Below, in pieces: positions 33,731 through 63,705 of a DNA stretch of 64,000 bases; within the stretch, counting starts at the first letter, position 1, and every line of letters begins with the position of its first letter. Below the pieces are notes generated by a model. It was not told the DNA's origin. It searched no databases and saw only the letters and a list, made by a program, of their open reading frames with translations. Both the position numbers and the translations under genes were made by a program. Origin of the DNA: Serpentinimonas raichei (GTDB taxonomy: Bacteria; Pseudomonadota; Gammaproteobacteria; Burkholderiales; Burkholderiaceae_C). The stretch covers positions 62,001 to 126,000 of the forward strand of contig NZ_AP014568.1 in the NCBI RefSeq assembly GCF_000828895.1, read 5' to 3'.

Positions 33731-33967
33731 ATGAAACTTAAACCCACACTGGCTGCCTTGTTCGCAGCCGCGCTCATCACTTCCCCCGTGCTGGCCCAAA
33801 CGCCTGCTCCGGTTGCTGCGCCTGCACCGGCTGGTGCTGCAGCGGCAGGGGCCGGGGCAGTGGGCGGCGTTGCCACCACCACCTTGGTGCTGGGTGCAGT
33901 GGCTGCTGCGGTGGTGGTTTCCGCCATTGCCGGTGATGGCACGGTGGCCACGGTAGCCACTCAGTAA
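33731..33967 (+). CDS. Small exported GfcA-like protein
   Basis: A 78-residue protein with a signal peptide cut after about residue 22 (SPVLA-Q). An Ala/Pro-rich linker and one hydrophobic Val/Ala/Gly segment (TTTLVLGAVAAAVVVSAIAG) follow, ending DGTVATVATQ. In E. coli group-4 capsule operons the first gene, gfcA, encodes a protein of just this plan, and here too it stands first before gfcB. Similarity is in layout and composition, so the name is tentative. GGAGG lies 7 bases before the ATG. A TATACT hexamer at about 33655 may be part of its promoter. Confidence 0.65.
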   Translation: MKLKPTLAALFAAALITSPVLAQTPAPVAAPAPAGAAAAGAGAVGGVATTTLVLGAVAAAVVVSAIAGDGTVATVATQ

Positions 33968-33990: not shown

Positions 33991-34725
33991 GTGCGCAGCG
34001 CAGATCGCAGGCTGGCTAGGGTGTTTCCTTTGGCTTTGCTGTGGCCCGCAGTGGTGGCCGCAGCGCTTGTGCTTTCCGGGTGCGCCACTCCTACCGCGCC
34101 CACCGTTCGTGTGGTGGGTTCTCTGCTCAGCCCTTTGTGGACCGGGTCACCCCAAGCCGCCGCTTTTGCTGCGCGGCTCAACCCTGCGCTCACCTACCTC
34201 TACTTGGCCGAAGACGGTCACGCGCCGGTCTTTTTGGCTTTGGGTTACATAGAGCCCAGCCAGCCATCCACTTTGGTTTGGTATTCGGCCGCGCAAGAGG
34301 TGTTGCGCACTCAAGGCGGCCGCCTCGTGGGCCTTACCGAGCAGTCTGCCAGCTCGGCCCGGTTGCGCTTCGATCAGGGCATTCCAGTTTGGCCCACTGC
34401 AACTGCCGGCCCGACCACCTACACCCGCTCATGGGATTTTCCCAATCGCTACCGCTTTGGCCTGCCCGATCAGGTGCAGTTGCACCCGCGCGGCTGGCAG
34501 CAAGTGCCGCCTGCCTTGCTGCGCCATGTGCGCTCCCAGCTCCAAAGCAGCGCCTACGCTCAGTGGCAGTGGTTTGAGGAAACCTCCACCCTCATGCCGC
34601 CTGCTTGGTTCGCCGTGGCTGCGCTAGCCGGGCAGCAGCAGGTGGTGTACTCCTACCAGTGCCTGTCGGCCGAGCGCTGCTTTCATCTGGCGCCTTGGCC
34701 CCTTGCACTCACCCCGCTTCCATGA
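33991..34725 (+). CDS. gfcB: GfcB/YjbF-type capsule lipoprotein
   Basis: A 244-residue lipoprotein with lipobox LSGC (Cys at about residue 31) and the YjbF/GfcB domain: ARLNPALTYLYLAEDG, ALGYIEPSQPSTLVWYSAAQEVLRTQGGRLVGL (read in parts), ending in a Cys-containing strand YSYQCLSAERC. GfcB proteins sit at the outer membrane and are needed for group-4 capsule or YjbEFGH polysaccharide secretion. The start is taken as GTG 33991; GTG 34021 would give a shorter signal peptide. It overlaps the next gene by ATGA. Confidence 0.85.
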   Translation: MRSADRRLARVFPLALLWPAVVAAALVLSGCATPTAPTVRVVGSLLSPLWTGSPQAAAFAARLNPALTYLYLAEDGHAPVFLALGYIEPSQPSTLVWYSAAQEVLRTQGGRLVGLTEQSASSARLRFDQGIPVWPTATAGPTTYTRSWDFPNRYRFGLPDQVQLHPRGWQQVPPALLRHVRSQLQSSAYAQWQWFEETSTLMPPAWFAVAALAGQQQVVYSYQCLSAERCFHLAPWPLALTPLP

Positions 34726-37700
34726 GCTTGCGCATACATCCCTTGGCGCTGGCTTTGCTCAGCGTTTTTGCTGTCATGTCGGTCGAGGGTGCAGGGGCAG
34801 CCGAGCGCGCCCTAGGGCCCGAACCGGCGCCGGGCGAGCGCCTCAGTGCTTGGGCCTTGCGTGTGCATGGCCCGCTGGCCGACACCACAGCCTTGCACTG
34901 GCACGCCCAAAGCGAGCGCCAGCCGCAGCACCTGTTGCGCGAGGCGGTGCTGGCCGGCCTCGAATCGGCGCGGCAGCGCGGTGATTTAAGTGCCCAAGCA
35001 CACGAAACCTTGAGCGCTTGGTTGTTGGCCCTGCCGGTTACCGGGCGCCTCACGCTGGCCACGCACGACCCCCGGGCCCTGCAAGTCATGCCCGAGAGCG
35101 ACCCGCAAGCCGGGCCCGGCCACAGTTTTGTGCACTTTGCGCGCCCCACCCAGGTGGTGGTGCTCAATTCCTCTGGCCTGCCCTGCCTGCTGCGGCACCA
35201 GCCAGGTGCTTGGGCACAAGACTATCTGCAAGCCTGCGCCCGGCTCCACGCCGCACACAGCCCGCCCGTGGATACGGTGTGGGTGGCGCAGGCCGACGGG
35301 CGGGTGCAAAGCTTTGGCGTAGCCCCTTGGAACCTCAGCCCCCAGTACCAGCCCAGCCCAGGTGCTTGGATCTGGGCACCCGAGCGCAACTCGGGCCTTG
35401 GCCCCGAACTCTCGTCCAACTTGGCGCGCTTGCTGGCCACCCAGGCACCGCCCGACGCCCACCCCGCTTTACAAGGCCACAGCACACCCGCCGCCGCCGT
35501 GGCCTTGGCGCAACCCAATCTGCACCACGAGCCGCGTGGCCCCGTGCTCACCGGCAACGACTGGGGCGAACTGGGCCTGCTGCAAACCCCCAGTGCCCGC
35601 ATGGGGCCGGCCGGCACCGTGCGCACCAGCATCAGCCAGGTGCAGCCCTACACCCGCCTCAACTTCATGCTGCAGCCGCTCGATTGGCTCCAGTTTGGCT
35701 TTCGCTACACCGATATTGGCAACCGCCTCTACGGCCCGGCCATCGCGGGCGATCAGTCGCTCAAAGACAAATCCATCGATCTCAAGTTGCGTTTAAGCCC
35801 CGAAAGCGCCACCTGGCCCGCCATCGCCCTGGGCGTGCGCGACATCGGCGGCACCGGCCTGTTTGCCAGCGAATACCTGGTGGCCAGCAAGCGCTGGGGC
35901 AACTGGGATGCCTCCCTCGGCCTGGGTTGGGGCAATATGGGCAGCCGCGGCAACGTGAGCAACCCCTTGCGTTTGTTGGGTAGCCGCTTCGAGCAGCGCG
36001 CCGCCGCCGACGTGGGCCAGGGCGGCGATTTCAACCTCAACAAGCTGTTTACCGGACCCGCCGCCGTGTTTGGTGGCGTGCAGTGGGCCTCACCCAGCAG
36101 CCCGTGGGTGTTCAAGGCCGAGCTCGACGGCAACAGCTACCAGGCCGAGCCGCTGGACAACGCGCAGCCGGTCGATTCCCCTATCAATTTGGGCGTGGTG
36201 TACCGCTGGGGCCCCACGGTCGAGCTGGCGCTCTCGTGGCAGCGCGGCAACCGGGTGGCGTTTGGCCTCACGCTGCAAGGCAACCTAGGCCAGGCCTACG
36301 TGCCCAAACTGCTCGACCCGGTCTTGCCCGCCTTGCGCACCCAAATGCCGGCCGCCTTGCCCGCTGCGGGTTGGGCCGATGTGGCCAGCGAAATCAACCG
36401 CTTCACCAGTTGGCAAGTGCAGTCGGTCAAGCAAACGCACGACCAAGCCTTGGTGGTGGCCGAGATCGATCCGTCGCCGTACCTGGAGCAGCGCATCGAG
36501 CGCGCCATCCGCGTCATGCACGCGCTGGCCCCGGCCTCTGTGCGCAGCTTCAGGCTGCAGCTCACACGGCACGCCCTGCCCTTGTCGGAGCTGCACATCG
36601 ACCGCACCGAATGGCTGCTGCAGCAAACCCAAGCGCTGCCCCCTTCGCAGGCGCTGGTGGCGCAGCAGCCGCACAACTTGGCCTTTGCCCCGATTGAGCA
36701 AAGCAGTGCACCGCCGGATCACTGGCAGGCCAATCCGCCCCGTTTTAGCGCCCAATGGGCACCCACGTTTAGCCAGATCATCGGCGGCCCCGATGGCTTC
36801 TTGCTGTACCAGTTGGGTGTGGGGGCCGATGCCCAGTGGCGCTTGACGCAGCGCACTTGGGTGAGCGGCAATGCGCACCTGCGCCTGATCGACAACTTTG
36901 ACCGCTTCAACTTCCCGGGCCACAGCGCGCTGCCTCGGGTGCGCACCTACATCCGCGAATACGTCACCAGCAGCCGCTTGACGCTGCCGCGCTTGCAGCT
37001 CACCCACGCCCGGCACCTCGGGGGCAACCACTACGCCAGCGTGTATGCGGGGCTGCTCGAAAGCATGTACGGCGGTGTGGGGGCCGAGTGGCTGTACCGG
37101 CCCTTCGGGCGCTCGTGGTCCTTCGGGGTGGACATCAACCACGTGCAGCAGCGCGGCTTTAGGCAAGATTTTTCGTTTCGCGATTACCGCGTCACCACCG
37201 GCCACGCCACCCTCAATTGGGACACCGGCTGGAACGACGTGCACGTCAAAATCCAAGCCGGGCGCTACCTGGCGGGTGACCACGGAGCCACGCTCGACAT
37301 CAGCCGCACCTTTCGCAACGGCACCTCCATTGGGGCCTGGGCCACCCTCACCGACGTGCCCTTTGCCGTTTTTGGCGAGGGCAGCTTCGACAAAGGCATC
37401 TACATCCGCATCCCCTTCGATGCCATGTTGCCCATCTCCACCTCCGGCGTGGCCAACTTGAGCTGGCAGCCCCTCACGCGCGACGGTGGGGCGCGCCTCA
37501 ACCGTTCCGACACACTCTTTGACCTCACCCAAGCGCGCAGCGGTCGGGCCCTGTTTTGGCGTCCGGCCGCGCCCCAGCCGCGGCGCAGCGCCGAGCGCAC
37601 CGCGTATGTGCTGCAAGAGCCCACGCCGCAGCCCTTTGACGACCCGCTCTCCAGTGCCGGCCAGCTATTCGATCAAGTGGGTGCCGTACCCACCCAAACA

Positions 37701-38294
37701 TGGCTGTGGGCTGGGGCGGCGGTGTTGGGCAGCGCCTTGCTCGACCGCAGCGCCGACCGCTGGGCCGCACGCAACCAAGGCGGCAACTGGGATCGGCTAG
37801 GGGATGTGGGCAATGCGCTGCCATTGGCTTTCACCGCCGGCTCGGCCCTGTTGGCCACCGGCGTGGCAGGCCCCGCCGCTTCTGGCACCGCGCAAACGGC
37901 CCTGCTGGCCGGTGCCGGTGCGTTGGGGGCGAGCATGGTAGTGCGCACCCTGGCGGGCCGCAGCCGGCCGCTGCAAGGGCAAGGCAGCAGCCAATTCGAA
38001 GGCCCGGGTTCGGGTTCACACCGCTCCAGCTTCACCTCCAACCACACCGCGCTGGCTTTTGCCCTGGTCACCCCCTTTGCGCGCCAGCACCAAATGCCCT
38101 GGCTCTATGGGCTGGCGGCAGCCACGGCGCTGGGGCGGGTGCAGCAGCGCGAGCACTGGCTGTCCGACACCGTGGGCGGTGCCCTGCTGGGTTATGGCAT
38201 TGGCACCCTGCTGTCGCTGCAGCAAGAAAACCCCGAGCGCGGCCCGCGTGTGCGCCTGACCGCACACTCGATACATGCCGACTGGAGCTTTTGA
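34722..38294 (+). CDS. GfcC-YjbH(GfcD)-PAP2 three-domain fusion
   Basis: A 1190-residue exported protein. The signal peptide ends near residue 23. Residues about 30-245 fit GfcC (beta-grasp capsule protein). About 278-945 fit the YjbH/GfcD outer-membrane beta-barrel, opening with NDWGELGLLQTPSARM and rich in alternating aromatic strands. About 980-1175 is a PAP2 phosphatase-like domain: R1080-S-R1082-P, S-N-H1108 where most enzymes have SGH, and R1139-x5-H1145-x3-D1149, so the catalytic His pair, Arg and Asp are kept. E. coli has GfcC and GfcD as separate proteins without PAP2. The start overlaps the gfcB stop (ATGA). The PAP2 domain might dephosphorylate a polyprenyl or lipid phosphate during export, which is inference. 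Confidence 0.85.
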   Translation: MSLRIHPLALALLSVFAVMSVEGAGAAERALGPEPAPGERLSAWALRVHGPLADTTALHWHAQSERQPQHLLREAVLAGLESARQRGDLSAQAHETLSAWLLALPVTGRLTLATHDPRALQVMPESDPQAGPGHSFVHFARPTQVVVLNSSGLPCLLRHQPGAWAQDYLQACARLHAAHSPPVDTVWVAQADGRVQSFGVAPWNLSPQYQPSPGAWIWAPERNSGLGPELSSNLARLLATQAPPDAHPALQGHSTPAAAVALAQPNLHHEPRGPVLTGNDWGELGLLQTPSARMGPAGTVRTSISQVQPYTRLNFMLQPLDWLQFGFRYTDIGNRLYGPAIAGDQSLKDKSIDLKLRLSPESATWPAIALGVRDIGGTGLFASEYLVASKRWGNWDASLGLGWGNMGSRGNVSNPLRLLGSRFEQRAAADVGQGGDFNLNKLFTGPAAVFGGVQWASPSSPWVFKAELDGNSYQAEPLDNAQPVDSPINLGVVYRWGPTVELALSWQRGNRVAFGLTLQGNLGQAYVPKLLDPVLPALRTQMPAALPAAGWADVASEINRFTSWQVQSVKQTHDQALVVAEIDPSPYLEQRIERAIRVMHALAPASVRSFRLQLTRHALPLSELHIDRTEWLLQQTQALPPSQALVAQQPHNLAFAPIEQSSAPPDHWQANPPRFSAQWAPTFSQIIGGPDGFLLYQLGVGADAQWRLTQRTWVSGNAHLRLIDNFDRFNFPGHSALPRVRTYIREYVTSSRLTLPRLQLTHARHLGGNHYASVYAGLLESMYGGVGAEWLYRPFGRSWSFGVDINHVQQRGFRQDFSFRDYRVTTGHATLNWDTGWNDVHVKIQAGRYLAGDHGATLDISRTFRNGTSIGAWATLTDVPFAVFGEGSFDKGIYIRIPFDAMLPISTSGVANLSWQPLTRDGGARLNRSDTLFDLTQARSGRALFWRPAAPQPRRSAERTAYVLQEPTPQPFDDPLSSAGQLFDQVGAVPTQTWLWAGAAVLGSALLDRSADRWAARNQGGNWDRLGDVGNALPLAFTAGSALLATGVAGPAASGTAQTALLAGAGALGASMVVRTLAGRSRPLQGQGSSQFEGPGSGSHRSSFTSNHTALAFALVTPFARQHQMPWLYGLAAATALGRVQQREHWLSDTVGGALLGYGIGTLLSLQQENPERGPRVRLTAHSIHADWSF

Positions 38295-38318
38295 AGCCGC
38301 CCCCAAGCTGTTTACAAT
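38291..38318 (+). promoter_or_regulatory. Sigma-70-like promoter before the wza-like gene
   Basis: TTGAAG (38291-38296) and TACAAT (38313-38318) with a 16-base spacer overlap the stop codon of the fusion gene. It would allow the wza-like and wzz-like genes to be transcribed apart from the gfc genes. Confidence 0.5.
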
Positions 38319-38346
38319 CCGCACAACTGTTTTCCTAGGGATGTCC

Positions 38347-40725
38347 ATGAAATTTGCCAAGCGCCTAAGCCATAAGTGTGCCCAGTTCGTCTGTGCCGTG
38401 GTTTTAGGAGCATCAGTGGGTGCTGCCAGTGCCCAAGTGGTGGGTGCGCCGGCACCCGTCGGCGGTTTCGGTGCGGCACCCGCTGCTTCTGCTGGCTCTG
38501 CCGTTCTGGGTATGCCGGCCGGGATGTTGGCATTGCCGGGCTTGCCAACCCAAGCAGGTGGGGCAACACCTGGCACACTAGGCGCTGGTACGGGGCTGCA
38601 GCCAGCCGCTGCAGCAGCCAATGCTCCCAGCCCAACACCTCAAGAGTTGACTGCAGGCCCCAGCCGGCCAGCGCTTGCAACCGTGGTTGCGCCCACGCAG
38701 TTTCAAAGCTTTGTGCAGCAAAGCACCGGTCAGTTGTTGCCCATTTTTGGGGCCCAGCTCTTTGCGCAGCCGCAGACCTTTGCCCCCATCAGCAACATTG
38801 CCGTGCCCGGCAGCTATGTATTGGGCCCCGGCGACACCGTTCAGCTCAATGTGTGGGGCTTGGCCGACTTTGCGGCCGCGCTCACCATCGACCGCCATGG
38901 CCAGGTGCAGGTGCCCCGGGCCGGCCCACTCACGCTGGCCGGCGTGCGCGCCGAGCAGCTAGAGGGCGTATTGCGCAACCACCTGGGCCGCGTGCTGGTC
39001 AATTTCGAGCTTTCGGCCACCGTGGCCAACTTGCGCAGCATCCAAGTGTATGTGGTGGGGCAGGCCAGCCGTCCTGGTACCTACACCATCTCCAGCCTCA
39101 GCACCCTCATCAACGCCCTCTTTGCCAGTGGCGGACCCAGCGCCAACGGCTCCATGCGCGCCATCGAACTGCGCCGCGCCAACCGCACCGTCACCACGCT
39201 CGACCTATACCGTTTCATCGCCCTAGGCGACAAGTCGCAAGACGTGCTGCTGCAGCCCGGCGACGTCATCGTCATCCCACCAGTAGGCCCACAGGTGGCG
39301 GTCACCGGTGCATTTGATCAAGCCGCGCTGTACGAGCTCAAACCCGGCGCAACCATCTCCGATGTGCTCGCCCCCGGTGGTGGGGTGCCGGTGCTGGCAG
39401 CCACCCAAATGGCCTTGCTGGAGCGCATCGATCCACAAGCCATCCCAGCGCGCCAAGTGGCCCAGCTGGCGCTCGACGCCGCCGGCCTGCGCACCGTGCT
39501 GCGCGATGGCGACATCCTAACCCTGCTCTCCATCAGCCCAGAGTTTGCCAACGCTGTCACGCTGCAAGGTGCGGTGGCAGCGCCCCTGCGCCACCCGTGG
39601 ACGCCGGGCATGCGCCTGTCACAGCTCATCCCGCAGACCGAGGCGCTTATCCAGGCCAACTTCTTTCAGCGCCAAAACCAATTGGTGCAACTGATTGGCG
39701 GGCCGCAAGGGGGCGCGCAAGCCCTGCAGCGCCATTTCCAGATCAACGCCGAAGCCATCAACTGGGACTACGCCGTCATCGAGCGGCTCAACCGCCAAAC
39801 CCTGCAGCGCCAGCTCATCCCCTTCAACCTGGGCCGTTTGGTGCTGCAGCGCGACGCCACCCAAGACCTCGAACTCCAGCCTGGCGATGTGGTCACCATT
39901 TTCACCCTCAGCGACTTGCAAGCCCCGCTGCAGCGCCAAGAGCGCGTGGTGCGCATCGAAGGCGAGGTGGCGGTGCCCGGTGTTTATGTGGCCCTGCCCG
40001 GCGAAACGCTGCCCCAGCTCATCCGCCGCATTGGCGGGCTTACCCCGCACGCCTATGTGTTTGGCACCCACTTGGCGCGCGAATCGGTGCGGCGCCAGCA
40101 GCAGCAAAACCTTGACCAACTCATTGCCCGCCTCGAATCTGGCTTGCAAGCCCAATCTGCGCAACAAGTTGCCGCGTTGCAAGGTGGAGCCGATGCAGCC
40201 CGCGCCAGCATCTTGATCGAAGCCCAGCGCGAAGCGCAGCGCCAGCAGGTGCAGCGCCTGCGCACCATGCGCAGCAACGGCCGCGTGGCGCTCGAAATCG
40301 ACCCACGCGACACCAGCTTGGCGGCCCTGCCCAACTTGCCGCTGGAAAACGGCGACCACATCGTGGTGCCCAGCGTGCCCGGCTTCGTGTCTGCCTTTGG
40401 CGCGGTCAACAACGAAAACACCTTCATCTTCAGGCCCGGCCGCACCGTGGGCGATGTGTTTCGCTTGGCCGGCCTCACGGCCGAAGCCGACGCCTCGCAA
40501 GCCTTTGTGCTGCGCGCCGATGGCACCATCTTGGCCAGTGCAGACCAGGGCGGCTGGTTTGGGGGCGGGCTAGAGGCTGTGGCGCTCATGCCCGGCGACA
40601 CCGTGGTGGTGCCGCAGCGCGAAGTGCGCGAAACCGGCTGGAACCTGTTCTTGCGCAACGCACGCGACATCACCCAGGTGCTGGCCAACCTCGGCTTGGG
40701 GCTCGCCGCCCTGCGCACCCTCTAA
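38347..40725 (+). CDS. Wza/GfcE-type polysaccharide export protein, enlarged and non-lipidated
   Basis: A 792-residue exported protein. The signal peptide ends in AASA-Q and no lipobox cysteine follows, unlike classic Wza. An Ala/Pro-rich stretch of about 110 residues precedes the polysaccharide export domain (YVLGPGDTVQLNVWGLADF). Several SLBB/beta-grasp repeats follow, for example SIQVYVVGQASRPGTYTISS, VVRIEGEVAVPGVYVALPGE and the late HIVVPSVPGFVSAFGAV, with a Gln-rich helix between. This is about twice the length of E. coli Wza. It should form the outer-membrane export channel for the polymer. I chose ATG 38347 for its TAGGG site; ATG 38341 is next to it. Confidence 0.85.
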   Translation: MKFAKRLSHKCAQFVCAVVLGASVGAASAQVVGAPAPVGGFGAAPAASAGSAVLGMPAGMLALPGLPTQAGGATPGTLGAGTGLQPAAAAANAPSPTPQELTAGPSRPALATVVAPTQFQSFVQQSTGQLLPIFGAQLFAQPQTFAPISNIAVPGSYVLGPGDTVQLNVWGLADFAAALTIDRHGQVQVPRAGPLTLAGVRAEQLEGVLRNHLGRVLVNFELSATVANLRSIQVYVVGQASRPGTYTISSLSTLINALFASGGPSANGSMRAIELRRANRTVTTLDLYRFIALGDKSQDVLLQPGDVIVIPPVGPQVAVTGAFDQAALYELKPGATISDVLAPGGGVPVLAATQMALLERIDPQAIPARQVAQLALDAAGLRTVLRDGDILTLLSISPEFANAVTLQGAVAAPLRHPWTPGMRLSQLIPQTEALIQANFFQRQNQLVQLIGGPQGGAQALQRHFQINAEAINWDYAVIERLNRQTLQRQLIPFNLGRLVLQRDATQDLELQPGDVVTIFTLSDLQAPLQRQERVVRIEGEVAVPGVYVALPGETLPQLIRRIGGLTPHAYVFGTHLARESVRRQQQQNLDQLIARLESGLQAQSAQQVAALQGGADAARASILIEAQREAQRQQVQRLRTMRSNGRVALEIDPRDTSLAALPNLPLENGDHIVVPSVPGFVSAFGAVNNENTFIFRPGRTVGDVFRLAGLTAEADASQAFVLRADGTILASADQGGWFGGGLEAVALMPGDTVVVPQREVRETGWNLFLRNARDITQVLANLGLGLAALRTL

Positions 40726-40742
40726 GCAGACCAGTGCAGTCC

Positions 40743-41936
40743 ATGAACCCGCAAGCCAGCCCCAGCCAGCCCAACGGCACCCCAGATGAGGACGAAATCT
40801 CTCTGCTCGATCTGTTCGCCACCATCGCCGCCAACCTCAAGCTGCTCATCATTGCCCCCTTGCTGGTGGGCTTTGCGGTGCTGGGCATCAGTTTTTTGAT
40901 GACGCCCATCTACACCGCGCAAACCAAGTTTTTACCGCCCATGCAGCAGCAAAGCGCCGCCGCGGCTATGCTGCAGCAGCTCGGTGGGCTGGCGGGTTTG
41001 GCCGGTGCAGCGGGGGGCATTGCCGACCCGGCCGATCAGTTTGTGGCGTTTTTGGGCAGCCGCTCGGTTCAAGACAGCCTAGTCGAGCGCTTTGCCCTCA
41101 TGGAGCGCTACGAAAGCCGCAACCGCGAGGCAGCCGCCCGCTCTTTGGGCGAGCGCACCCGCATCAGCAGCGGCCGCGACGGCTTAATTACCATCGCATT
41201 CGACGACCCCGACCCCGCCTTCGCCGCCCAAGTGGCCAACGCCTACGTAGAAGAGCTAGGCCAGCTAGTAGGCCGCTTGGCGCTTACCGAGGCCCAGCAC
41301 CGGCGCAAGTTTTTTGAGCAGCATTTGGTCAAGGTCAGTGCCGACCTGCAAGAGGCCGAGCAAGCCCTAATGGCCACGGGTGTGAATGTGCGGGCACTCA
41401 ACATTCAGCCCGGTGCCGCCTTGCAAGCCGTGGCCCTGCTGCGCGCCCAGGTTACCGCACAAGAGGTGCAAGTGGCCAGCATGCGCACCCACCTCAGCGA
41501 AGCCGCCCCCGAGCTGCGCCAAGCCATGGCTACATTGGGTGCCCTGAGGGGGCAGCTAAACCGGCTCGATGCGCAAGAACGGGCCACCCCCAACACAGCG
41601 GCCGGCACCAACCCAAACAACCCCGGCTACTTTGCGCGCTTGCGCGAGTTCACGCTGCAGCAAACCCTGTTCGAGCTCATGGTCAAGCAATACGAAATGG
41701 CCCGGGTGGACGAATCGCGCGAAGGCGCCAGCATTCAAGTGCTCGACATCGCCCAAGCCCCCGAGCAGCGCTCCAGCCCGCGGCGCGCCATCATGGCCAC
41801 CATAGCCTCACTGGCTACGGGTTTTGCTTTGCTGTTGTTTGTATTTGTGCGCGAAGCCGTGCGCAATGCGGGTAATGACCCCGAAAGCTCGGCCAAAATG
41901 GCCAAGATACGGCGCAGTTTGGGTTTGCCTGCTTAG
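40743..41936 (+). CDS. Wzz-like polysaccharide co-polymerase without kinase domain
   Basis: A 397-residue inner-membrane protein of the Wzz/PCP family. Helix 1 lies around residues 32-54 (LKLLIIAPLLVGFAVLGISF) and helix 2 near 360-385 (TIASLATGFALLLFVFVREA) with the Pro-rich PEQRSSPRRA before it. The periplasmic coiled part sits between. Such proteins set polymer length and dock to the Wza channel. After helix 2 only about 25 residues remain, so there is no Wzc/Etk tyrosine-kinase domain. It starts 17 bases after the wza-like gene. No glycosyltransferases are adjacent. Confidence 0.87.
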   Translation: MNPQASPSQPNGTPDEDEISLLDLFATIAANLKLLIIAPLLVGFAVLGISFLMTPIYTAQTKFLPPMQQQSAAAAMLQQLGGLAGLAGAAGGIADPADQFVAFLGSRSVQDSLVERFALMERYESRNREAAARSLGERTRISSGRDGLITIAFDDPDPAFAAQVANAYVEELGQLVGRLALTEAQHRRKFFEQHLVKVSADLQEAEQALMATGVNVRALNIQPGAALQAVALLRAQVTAQEVQVASMRTHLSEAAPELRQAMATLGALRGQLNRLDAQERATPNTAAGTNPNNPGYFARLREFTLQQTLFELMVKQYEMARVDESREGASIQVLDIAQAPEQRSSPRRAIMATIASLATGFALLLFVFVREAVRNAGNDPESSAKMAKIRRSLGLPA

Positions 41937-61740: not shown

Positions 61741-63705
61741 TCAACCCGCCTGCTGCTCTAGGTAAACCCAGTCCACAATCGCCTCGTTCGGGGTGTAGCC
61801 CGGCACCAGGTGCTGCAGTTGCAGGCGGATGGTGGGCACGTCGTTGTGCTGCATGGCCAAGTCGAGTTCGGCCAGGTGCCCTTCGAGCTGCGCCCAGGGC
61901 AAAAAATCGTCCTGCGCTTTGAGGATGCGCGGGTGCAGCGTGGGGCTGGGGTTGTCGCCCAGCAGCAGTTCTTCGTACAGCTTCTCGCCCGGGCGCAGGC
62001 CGCTGAGTTCGATGGCGATGTCGCCCGTGGGGTTGGCATCGTCTTGTACGCTCAGGCCCGAGAGCTCGATCATGCGCCGCGCCAGGTCGATGATGCGCAC
62101 CGGCTGCCCCATGTCCAGCACAAACACCTCGCCGCCCTTGGCCATGGCCCCGGCCTGGATGACGAGCTGCGCTGCCTCGGGGATGCTCATGAAGTAGCGC
62201 GTGATGTCGGGGTGCGTGAGCGTGAGCGGGCCGCCGTCGCGGATTTGCTGGCGAAACTTGGGCACCACCGAGCCCGATGAGCCCAGCACGTTGCCAAAGC
62301 GCACCATGGCAAAGCGGGTCGTGCCCGCGGTGCCCGCCGCGCCCGCCGATGCCGCCGCCAGCGCCTGCAGCACCATTTCGGCCAGGCGCTTGCTGGCGCC
62401 CATGATGTTGGTCGGGCGCACCGCTTTGTCGGTGCTCACCAGCACAAAATCGCTCACCCCCGCCTGCAGCGCCGCCTGCGCCGTGCGCAGCGTGCCCAGC
62501 ACGTTGTTCTTCACCCCTTCAGCCGGGTTGTGCTCCACCAGCGGCACGTGCTTGTAGGCGGCGGCGTGGTAGACCGTGTGCGGCTGCCAGGTTTGCATGA
62601 TTTCGTGCAGGCGCGCGGCGTCTTGCACCGAGGCCAGCAGCGGCAGCAGCTCGATCTGCCCCGGGTCGGCCCCGGCAGCGCCCGCTGTGCGCTTGTCTTC
62701 GAGCTCGTGGTGAATGGCGTAGAGGGCGAATTCGCTCTGCTCCAGCAGCAGCAGCTTGGCCGGCCGCACGGCCCAGATCTGGCGGCACAGTTCGCTGCCA
62801 ATGGAGCCACCCGCCCCCGTGACCAACACCACCTTGCCGACGATGTTTTTGGCCAGCAAAATGTGGTTGGGGGCCACCGGCTCGCGCCCGAGCAAGTCGT
62901 CGAGGTCGAGCTCGCGCACATCGGCCAGGCTCACCTTGCCCTGCGCCAGGTCGTTCATGCTGGGCAGCGTGCGCACCGCCACGTGCGCGGCACGCATTTG
63001 TTCGATCACCTCGTTGCGCCGCTTGCGCCCAATGTTGGGCATGGCCAGCAGCACATCGCGTATGCCTAGGGTGCGCGCCAGCACCGGCAGGTCGGCCGGG
63101 TTGTAGATGGGCAGCCCGTTGAGCACGTGGCCGTGCAGGCGCTCGTCGTCGTCGAGCAAACCGGCCACTTGCAGCTCGGGGCTGTGCTGCATGGCGGCGG
63201 CCAGTTGGCGCCCGCTTTGCCCGGCACCGTAGATCAGCACCCGGGGCCGCTGGGCGCGGCGCAGCAGGCCCTGGTACTGCTCGCCCAGCCAGTGCCGCGC
63301 CAGCGCGCGCGAAGCGCCCACAAACAGCAGCAGCAGCAGCGGCTGGATCAGGCCCACGGTGCGCGGCACGCCCGGCACCCCAATGGCGGTAAAAATCGCC
63401 GCATACAGCAGCGCATAGATTGCCACCGCCCGCGCCACCGCCAGCAGCGCTGGCCAGCCGCTGTAGCGGAAAATGGCCCGGTAAAGCCCCGAGACGATAA
63501 AGATCGGCAGCGCCAGCGCCACCGCGCCCGCCACCGCCCACCGCGCCGCCCCGCTGAGCGGCACCAGCTCGCCCAGGCGCAAATAAAACGCCAACCAGAC
63601 CGTGAGCACGCACAGCGCCAAGTCCACCAGCAGCGCCACGGCGCGCTTGGCGGGGCGGGGCAGGGCGAGGATGGGGGAGCTTAGTTTATGGAGCAACAGA
63701 TTCAT
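61741..63705 (-). CDS. Membrane-bound nucleotide-sugar 4,6-dehydratase, PglF/WbpM/CapD type
   Basis: A 654-residue inner-membrane enzyme. Four N-terminal helices (to about 130) lead to a CoA-binding-like Rossmann domain (VLIYGAGQSGRQL), then the SDR dehydratase domain: VLVTGAGGSIGSELCRQI, YHAAAYKHVPLVE, STDKAVRPTNIMGASKRLAE where Met replaces the usual Tyr of YxxxK as in PglF, and MVRFGNVLGSSGSVVP. It most likely turns UDP-GlcNAc into a 4-keto-6-deoxy sugar. It overlaps the upstream aminotransferase by 20 bases, which fits synthesis of a bacillosamine-type amino sugar. Confidence 0.92.
   Translation of the reverse strand: MNLLLHKLSSPILALPRPAKRAVALLVDLALCVLTVWLAFYLRLGELVPLSGAARWAVAGAVALALPIFIVSGLYRAIFRYSGWPALLAVARAVAIYALLYAAIFTAIGVPGVPRTVGLIQPLLLLLFVGASRALARHWLGEQYQGLLRRAQRPRVLIYGAGQSGRQLAAAMQHSPELQVAGLLDDDERLHGHVLNGLPIYNPADLPVLARTLGIRDVLLAMPNIGRKRRNEVIEQMRAAHVAVRTLPSMNDLAQGKVSLADVRELDLDDLLGREPVAPNHILLAKNIVGKVVLVTGAGGSIGSELCRQIWAVRPAKLLLLEQSEFALYAIHHELEDKRTAGAAGADPGQIELLPLLASVQDAARLHEIMQTWQPHTVYHAAAYKHVPLVEHNPAEGVKNNVLGTLRTAQAALQAGVSDFVLVSTDKAVRPTNIMGASKRLAEMVLQALAAASAGAAGTAGTTRFAMVRFGNVLGSSGSVVPKFRQQIRDGGPLTLTHPDITRYFMSIPEAAQLVIQAGAMAKGGEVFVLDMGQPVRIIDLARRMIELSGLSVQDDANPTGDIAIELSGLRPGEKLYEELLLGDNPSPTLHPRILKAQDDFLPWAQLEGHLAELDLAMQHNDVPTIRLQLQHLVPGYTPNEAIVDWVYLEQQAG

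What the first reader, a model, noticed from the sequence alone, without database searches (positions are those of the whole stretch)
34722..38294. GfcC, outer-membrane YjbH barrel and PAP2 phosphatase fused in one 1190-residue protein
Seen: one uninterrupted frame holds a GfcC-like region (about 30-245), a YjbH/GfcD-like barrel (about 278-945) and a PAP2-like domain with R1080/R1082-P, H1108 and R1139-x5-H1145-x3-D1149 conserved. Known: in E. coli gfcC and gfcD are separate, and the operon ends in the phosphatase/kinase pair etp-etk. Inferred: a phosphatase tied to an outer-membrane secretion protein could process a lipid carrier or lipid anchor at the export site, replacing or adding to control by tyrosine phosphorylation. 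The SNH in place of SGH may change its substrate. I know of no description of this fusion.
Basis: partly seen in the sequence, partly recalled or inferred. Interest (0 to 1): 0.82.

Follow-up and report, generated by a model that had tools for sequence, protein, structure and literature searches.

The report
Polysaccharide export barrel fused to phosphatase
A bacterial outer-membrane protein thought to help export surface polysaccharide carries, in the same chain, what looks like an intact lipid-phosphate phosphatase, and relatives of that phosphatase are attached to or encoded beside a second, unrelated capsule barrel, which points to an unrecognised enzyme step where polysaccharide leaves the cell.

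The parts
33731..33967 (+). small Gly/Ala-rich protein, 78 aa, signal-like N-terminus by eye, in the position of gfcA/yjbE
   Evidence: sequence; no Pfam match near a cut-off; role by position only
33991..34725 (+). GfcB/YjbF-like protein with LSGC lipobox (by eye)
   Evidence: Pfam YjbF 23.1 bits, E 6.9e-5, just under the cut-off of 25.9; overlaps the next ATG by 4 bp
34722..38294 (+). GfcC - YjbH/GfcD double barrel - PAP2 fusion protein, 1190 aa (P0001)
34722..34799 (+). probable Sec signal peptide, residues 1 to about 26
   Evidence: sequence only (hydrophobic stretch 8-26); no signal-peptide program was run
34800..35465 (+). GfcC-like domain, residues 27-248
35541..36284 (+). barrel 1, residues 274-521, 12 strands
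36303..36686 (+). middle alpha/beta domain, residues about 528-655 (GfcD-M); a second copy stands before PAP2 in long homologues
   Evidence: DSSP; repeated YjbH-profile positions about 250-380 in L031, L040, L053, L064 and others
36735..37481 (+). barrel 2, residues 672-920, 13 strands
37467..37643 (+). tail/linker, residues 916-974, between barrel 2 and PAP2
37644..38249 (+). PAP2 domain, residues 975-1176, low-hydropathy helix bundle
37944..37970 (+). PAP2 motif C1: R1075-x6-R1082-P1083 (K to R at the first position)
38037..38045 (+). PAP2 motif C2: S1106-N1107-H1108
38136..38168 (+). PAP2 motif C3: R1139-x5-H1145-x3-D1149
38275..40725 (+). [quoted passage not shown]
   Evidence: Pfam; start uncertain (38275 or 38347)
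40734..41936 (+). Wzz-type polysaccharide co-polymerase, 400 aa, no kinase domain
   Evidence: Pfam Wzz 40.9 bits, no kinase/AAA match

Best explanation
The protein is an outer-membrane polysaccharide export/assembly protein (GfcC fused to the GfcD/YjbH double barrel) with its own phosphatase. The phosphatase belongs to a clade of exported PAP2 domains that have lost transmembrane hydrophobicity and work at the outer-membrane end of polysaccharide export. Steps shown: the fusion, the PAP2 fold (predicted), conserved catalytic residues, low hydropathy, fusion of the same PAP2 clade to two unrelated capsule/EPS barrels, and some free relatives beside OPX, Wzz-type, Wzi or sugar-transferase genes. 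Steps inferred: (a) the domain sits in the periplasm at the barrel mouth; (b) it uses the PAP2 phospho-histidine mechanism; (c) its substrate is the phosphate at the lipid end of the exported glycan (undecaprenyl-(pyro)phosphate end or anchor lipid), so that hydrolysis frees or trims the lipid end as the chain passes the barrel and commits it to release or surface anchoring. Confidence: about 0.9 that it is a catalytically competent phosphatase coupled to EPS/capsule export, about 0.4 for substrate (c). The figure below is for the whole statement, with (c) read broadly as a phosphorylated lipid or glycolipid in the export path.
Confidence: 0.6

Rival explanations
1. LpxE-like action on outer-membrane lipid: the domain removes phosphate from lipid A, LPS core or phospholipid next to the barrel and so tunes how the anionic polysaccharide is retained on the surface.
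Against: Fold similarity does not give substrate, and B. subtilis PgpB is tied with LpxE. LPS phosphates in the outer leaflet would need a surface-facing domain.
Confidence: 0.22
2. Glycan-phosphate transferase: as in inositol-phosphorylceramide synthases of the PAP2 superfamily, the domain moves glycan-phosphate from the undecaprenyl carrier to an outer-membrane lipid, anchoring the polysaccharide.
Confidence: 0.1
3. General periplasmic acid phosphatase for phosphate scavenging that was merely tethered to a large envelope protein.
Against: The two partner barrels seen are both capsule/EPS proteins, and some free kin sit in EPS loci, which scavenging does not predict.
Confidence: 0.1
4. Non-catalytic or structural module (plug, oligomerisation or docking part) that keeps the PAP2 fold.
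For: Another C-terminal element of unclear role, the plug, exists in GfcD (PMC11494523).
Against: The catalytic positions are kept in 189-191 of 191 proteins over a wide range of divergence; three proteins (P0137, P0146, P0169) depart at one position.
Confidence: 0.05

Closest known systems
GfcD / YjbH of E. coli (PF06082), double-barrel outer-membrane protein
   Same: Same Pfam family at 764.9 bits, same 12 + 13 strand count in the model (counts for GfcD from PMC11494523), same order of GfcB-, GfcC-, GfcD- and OPX-like parts
OtnG of Burkholderia thailandensis, GfcC-GfcD fusion (PMC8592465, Discussion read)
   Same: GfcC and GfcD fused in one 995-aa protein
   Different: No PAP2 is mentioned; 995 aa fits the PAP2-less two-domain form (36 complete frames)
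E. coli gfcABCDE-etp-etk group 4 capsule operon
   Same: GfcB-, C-, D- and E-like parts in the same order
   Different: No etp/etk here; PAP2 attached to D; Wzz-type protein without kinase
PgpB and LpxE lipid phosphatases (PAP2)
   Different: These are inner-membrane proteins (recalled; the 5jki title says transmembrane). The present domain has lost hydrophobicity and is tethered to an outer-membrane barrel
cpsACP/orf2, PAP2 gene between galF and wzi in Klebsiella-type K loci (PMC3438125, PMC6258164, PMC9176290 passages; PMC6247091 section part; that cpsACP and orf2 are one gene is inferred from position)
   Same: A PAP2 gene in a capsule locus beside wzi. In KL175 and KL176 wzi is replaced by four sequences including GfcC and YjbH genes, three of which have counterparts in KL33 and KL40, also without wzi (PMC9176290). 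orf2 is listed under low-capsule mutants (PMC6247091). The order galF-PAP2-Wzi-OPX-phosphatase-kinase was read in an E. coli chromosome (L231)
   Different: Tested on the L231 gene: 13.1 bits to the present PAP2 profile, hydrophobic (mean 0.70), C1 pattern not found and last Asp of motif C3 replaced. Another PAP2 lineage, so a parallel and not a member of this clade
YfiM-type lipocone domains fused to outer-membrane barrels (PMC12419801, passages read)
   Same: A lipid head-group enzyme fold fused to an outer-membrane barrel, proposed to link or release polysaccharide
   Different: Different fold and family; in the two PAP2 passages seen, PAP2 is an operon neighbour and an example of soluble descendants

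Membership tests
YjbH/GfcD (PF06082) | Profile match over the curated cut-off, full length | tested here: met
   764.9 bits, positions 2-657 of 658, cut-off 24
YjbH/GfcD (PF06082) | Two barrels, 12 and 13 strands, with a middle domain | tested here: met
YjbH/GfcD (PF06082) | Outer-membrane location | not testable with these tools
   shown for E. coli GfcD (PMC8592465); inferred here
GfcC | GfcC fold and C-terminal Pfam domain | tested here: met
PAP2 superfamily | Profile match over the cut-off | tested here: met
   44.6 bits, cut-off 27.2
PAP2 superfamily | PAP2 helix-bundle fold | tested here: met
PAP2 superfamily | Motifs K-x6-RP, PSGH, SR-x5-H-x3-D (motif wording recalled) | tested here: met
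   catalytic Arg, His, Arg, His, Asp all present; departures from the wording: K to R1075, PSG to TSN, S to G1138
PAP2 superfamily | Phosphatase activity | not testable with these tools
   needs an assay
Undecaprenyl-diphosphate phosphatase (NCBIfam NF008813) | Equivalog score | tested here: not met
   13.3 bits against a cut-off of 229
Class A (PhoN-like) soluble acid phosphatases | Closest fold among PAP2 types | tested here: inconclusive
Group 4 capsule operon with etp-etk | Tyrosine phosphatase/kinase pair in the operon | tested here: not met
   none among the operon proteins scanned; no WZC_N in the genome; the two LMWPc genes lie at C1:1311956 and C1:1993774, far from the operon near C1:100000
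Klebsiella-type cpsACP/orf2 | Same PAP2 lineage as the present domain | tested here: not met
   13.1 bits to my profile, hydrophobic, motifs C1 and C3 altered, tested on the E. coli copy L231:10285-10914

The most novel reading that the evidence does not exclude
The barrel-tethered PAP2 domains are a dedicated enzyme of polysaccharide export at the outer membrane. They cut (or transfer) the phosphate linkage between glycan and its lipid as the chain passes the barrel. This is the step that decides release or lipid anchoring in these Gram-negative capsule and EPS systems, and the enzyme occurs as a free exported protein, a Wzi fusion or a GfcC-GfcD fusion.
Probability: 0.3. Interest if true: 0.88.

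Novelty: new variant of a known kind. Interest (0 to 1): 0.68.

Why it matters
How Gram-negative capsule and EPS chains are freed from their lipid carrier or held at the surface is unsettled: a 2025 review says the exact mechanism of retention is not known (PMC12220298, passage), and the anchor of some group 4 polysaccharides is uncharacterised (PMC11494523, part read). A catalytic domain tied to both GfcD/YjbH and Wzi gives this question an enzyme with recognisable catalytic residues, which can be mutated one at a time in non-pathogenic Betaproteobacteria. It could also help explain why PAP2 genes sit in capsule loci.

Tried and rejected
Sequencing error or chance join: rejected.

SNH as a special signature: rejected, the position is variable.

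PAP2 as the cell's general undecaprenyl-PP recycling enzyme: unlikely, since BacA is present and a same-genus genome has no PAP2 match.

Ordinary hydrophobic inner-membrane PAP2 simply appended: rejected on hydropathy.

Tyrosine-control replacement: the local association is strong uncorrected (Fisher p 7e-5), but there are only 3 independent pairs (none the other way); left open.

Homology of Klebsiella-type cpsACP/orf2 to this clade: tested on the E. coli copy and not met.

phmmer of the whole protein against PDB sequences gave nothing at E 10. tblastn of a free exported PAP2 against plasmids gave no match. Foldseek of the domain alone gave no PDB row at E 0.001 (best 5jki, 4.2e-3). The first divergent galF place opened (L230) had an O-antigen locus and no PAP2; the second (L231) had it. 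The paper on multi-barrel proteins is not held, so whether it mentions PAP2 is unknown to me.

Not done: geometry of PAP2 relative to the membrane, because model coordinates cannot be read here. No signal-peptide program was run. The third structural-library job, two VIA jobs and the viral collection were not used.

Full report
WHAT IS THERE. Window 34722-38294 (+) is a single frame of 1190 codons. Upstream lie a 78-aa protein in the place of gfcA/yjbE and a GfcB/YjbF-like protein (Pfam YjbF at 23.1 bits, slightly below its cut-off) whose stop overlaps the fusion's ATG by 4 bp; overlaps of 1-4 bp are described for gfcB-gfcC and gfcC-gfcD (PMC8592465, Discussion). Downstream lie an OPX protein and a Wzz-type protein without a kinase domain. 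The genome is one contig of 2.57 Mb. A close relative of the protein is named Serpentinimonas (P0003, 81% identity).

CONSERVATION. In a MAFFT alignment of the 191 proteins then in hand (P0001 and the hits; 186 YjbH-type, 5 Wzi-type), R1080, P1083, S1106, R1139, H1145 and D1149 are 191/191, R1082 190 and H1108 189; the first residue of motif C1 is R in 127, K in 63 and E in 1; the middle residue of S-x-H is N in 143 and G in 10. The hits were collected by words from the first 500 residues, so their intact PAP2 sites are not a product of the search; those were collected by the PAP2 part.

HOW COMMON; 1211 proteins at E 0.001, the 120 best listed, all with PAP2 and YjbH; the rest were not seen; of 80 loci (the best of 551), 36 carry GfcC+YjbH+PAP2 in one frame, 39 have complete frames without PAP2 (36 GfcC+YjbH, 3 YjbH with GfcC in a separate frame) and 5 are cut by contig ends. 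Named members include Rhodoferax, Macromonas bipunctata, Variovorax ginsengisoli and Gallionella, with many Betaproteobacteria MAGs. On a YjbH tree the PAP2 label needs 7 changes when cut rows are left out, and well-supported branches force at least 5 for the PAP2-less group; one row (L142) has a very long branch. In 120 genomes of the own family YjbH occurs in 12 and PAP2 in 108; the one other genome of the genus in that sample has neither.

THE PAP2 DOMAIN HAS CHANGED CHARACTER. The median Kyte-Doolittle mean of fused PAP2 is 0.03 (n = 191) against 0.83 for 21 ordinary PAP2 frames of the family, namely those that my profile picked up in 30 fetched loci; 178 of 191 have no 19-residue window over 1.6, against 1 of 21. 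A hydrophobic PAP2 would be expected to stay in the inner membrane, so this loss fits a domain that travels to the outer membrane (inference). In homologues of roughly 1300-1600 codons (stop to stop) a second copy of the middle domain of GfcD stands between barrel 2 and PAP2. That domain is placed at the periplasmic entrance of barrel 2 in GfcD (PMC11494523), which favours a periplasmic PAP2. Against this, 13 strands would leave the chain outside unless the tail (residues 916-974) runs back through the lumen. Topology is therefore open.

A SECOND PARTNER. Searching with the tail alone (111 hits) gave, besides YjbH proteins, five fusions of Wzi (PF14052) with PAP2, confirmed. A search with one of them found 377 proteins; all 120 listed carry Wzi and PAP2. 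In the 122 Wzi-PAP2 proteins in hand the C3 motif is present in 122, C1 in 118 and C2 in 114 by pattern, median hydropathy is 0.01, and 89 have no window over 1.6. On a tree the fused PAP2 domains are one clade apart from ordinary PAP2, and Wzi-type domains appear in two places inside YjbH-type ones. In the family sample one Wzi-PAP2 frame was also found (L127); most other long PAP2 frames looked at there showed no YjbH or Wzi match.

FREE RELATIVES. Because the protein search only returns proteins of similar length, I searched whole genomes with the domain (369 genomes) and with a profile (and 369 genomes). The five hits outside the own genome are frames of 276-421 aa with low hydropathy, several with a signal sequence or lipobox by eye. 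Of the 22 regions read from the 32 matching genomes, one (L188) is again a YjbH-PAP2 fusion. Of the 21 others, 6 lie beside export genes: PAP2 overlapping Wzi on the same strand (L189, L191), PAP2-OPX-Wzi in line (L192), PAP2 divergent to OPX-Wzz (L151, L205) and PAP2 beside a sugar transferase (L154; L151 also has one). All six are among the 9 that score at least 90 bits on my profile, a cut chosen after seeing the scores. The 12 weaker ones show none of these genes; one (L197) has a Wzb-profile hit. Several stretches are cut by contig ends. Control: 0 of 20 loci of ordinary PAP2 from the own family, where L212 has only weak Wzb/Wzc-profile hits of 24 and 20 bits; the control differs in taxonomy from the kin. 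The EPS-linked free kin and the fused ones do not form a single clade (AU p 0.0005), so the link exists in several branches of the exported group.

KINASE QUESTION. Within flanks of at least 6.5 kb, Wzc-type kinases are near 0 of 12 PAP2-fused loci and 17 of 25 loci without PAP2, and Wzb near 0 of 12 and 15 of 25; the profiles were seeded from PAP2-less loci. Independent pairs number 3, of which on average 1.8 go the expected way for Wzc and none the other. This is suggestive only.

PUBLISHED PARALLEL. Klebsiella K loci keep galF, cpsACP, wzi, wza, wzb and wzc (PMC9176290 passage). The gene after galF is annotated as a phosphatidic acid phosphatase (orf2, PMC3438125; also PMC6258164) or PAP2 family protein (PMC6247091); that cpsACP and orf2 are one gene is my inference from position. 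In KL175 and KL176 wzi is replaced by four sequences including GfcC and YjbH genes, three with counterparts in KL33 and KL40, also without wzi. In a density-TraDISort screen orf2 is listed under low-capsule mutants. An E. coli chromosome with this gene order was read (L231), and that PAP2 gene matches in 553 of 5426 E. coli genomes, 469 over at least 80% of its length. Tested against the present clade it is not a member: 13.1 bits, mean hydropathy 0.70, motifs C1 and C3 altered. So PAP2 has become linked to capsule barrels in at least two lineages of the superfamily.

MECHANISM. Shown: an intact PAP2 site, on a low-hydropathy domain, joined to or encoded with outer-membrane polysaccharide proteins of two unrelated kinds. 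Inferred: it acts on phosphate at the lipid end of the exported glycan or on a neighbouring outer-membrane lipid. GfcD has been modelled as a lateral gate for lipid-anchored polysaccharide (PMC11494523), and Wzi is needed for surface retention rather than export (passages); the common element is the attachment or release end of the polymer, which is why I prefer this substrate to general carrier recycling. BacA is present in the genome.

PRIOR WORK. Ten library searches turned up no description of a PAP2 fusion to YjbH/GfcD or Wzi. I saw listings for most papers and passages or sections of those cited; the library lacks most subscription papers. Database labels such as 'YjbH domain-containing protein' and 'membrane-associated phospholipid phosphatase' exist for members. 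The GfcC-GfcD fusion was known (PMC8592465).

VERDICT. New variant of a known kind, interest 0.68.

Noticed in passing
window 61744-63705 (-) and L085 (genome C1:125500-145000): The only PF02397 sugar transferase match of the genome lies in a pgl/cap-like sugar locus 20-25 kb from the export operon (dehydratase, DegT aminotransferases, PglD-like acetyltransferase, GT4 transferases, epimerases).
   Followed up: partly
L085:9103-11415: Two low-GC frames (third-position GC 0.25-0.29), one with no Pfam match and one glycosyltransferase, inside this GC-rich locus; probably foreign.
   Followed up: no
own genome G000: No Wzx-type flippase match (PF01943) although 13 of 14 control genomes have it; a 600-aa ABC transporter (L085:14359-16158) near the sugar genes may flip the lipid-linked glycan.
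   Followed up: partly
L031, L040, L053, L064 and similar loci: A second copy of the GfcD middle domain stands between barrel 2 and PAP2 in the long members.
   Followed up: partly
P0128: A YjbH-PAP2 protein of 969 aa in which Pfam also sees an alpha/beta-hydrolase at the N-terminus (residues 28-172), scores near the cut-offs.
   Followed up: no
L213:8219-8791: One control locus holds a second PAP2 frame of 191 aa with low hydropathy (-0.04); the ordinary PAP2 for which it was fetched lies nearby.
   Followed up: no
OPX proteins of L004, L013, L016, L020, L151, L192, L205: Several large OPX proteins score weakly (25-34 bits) against my GfcC profile, in line with published class 2 OPX with a GfcC module (PMC9603273 passage).
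   Followed up: no
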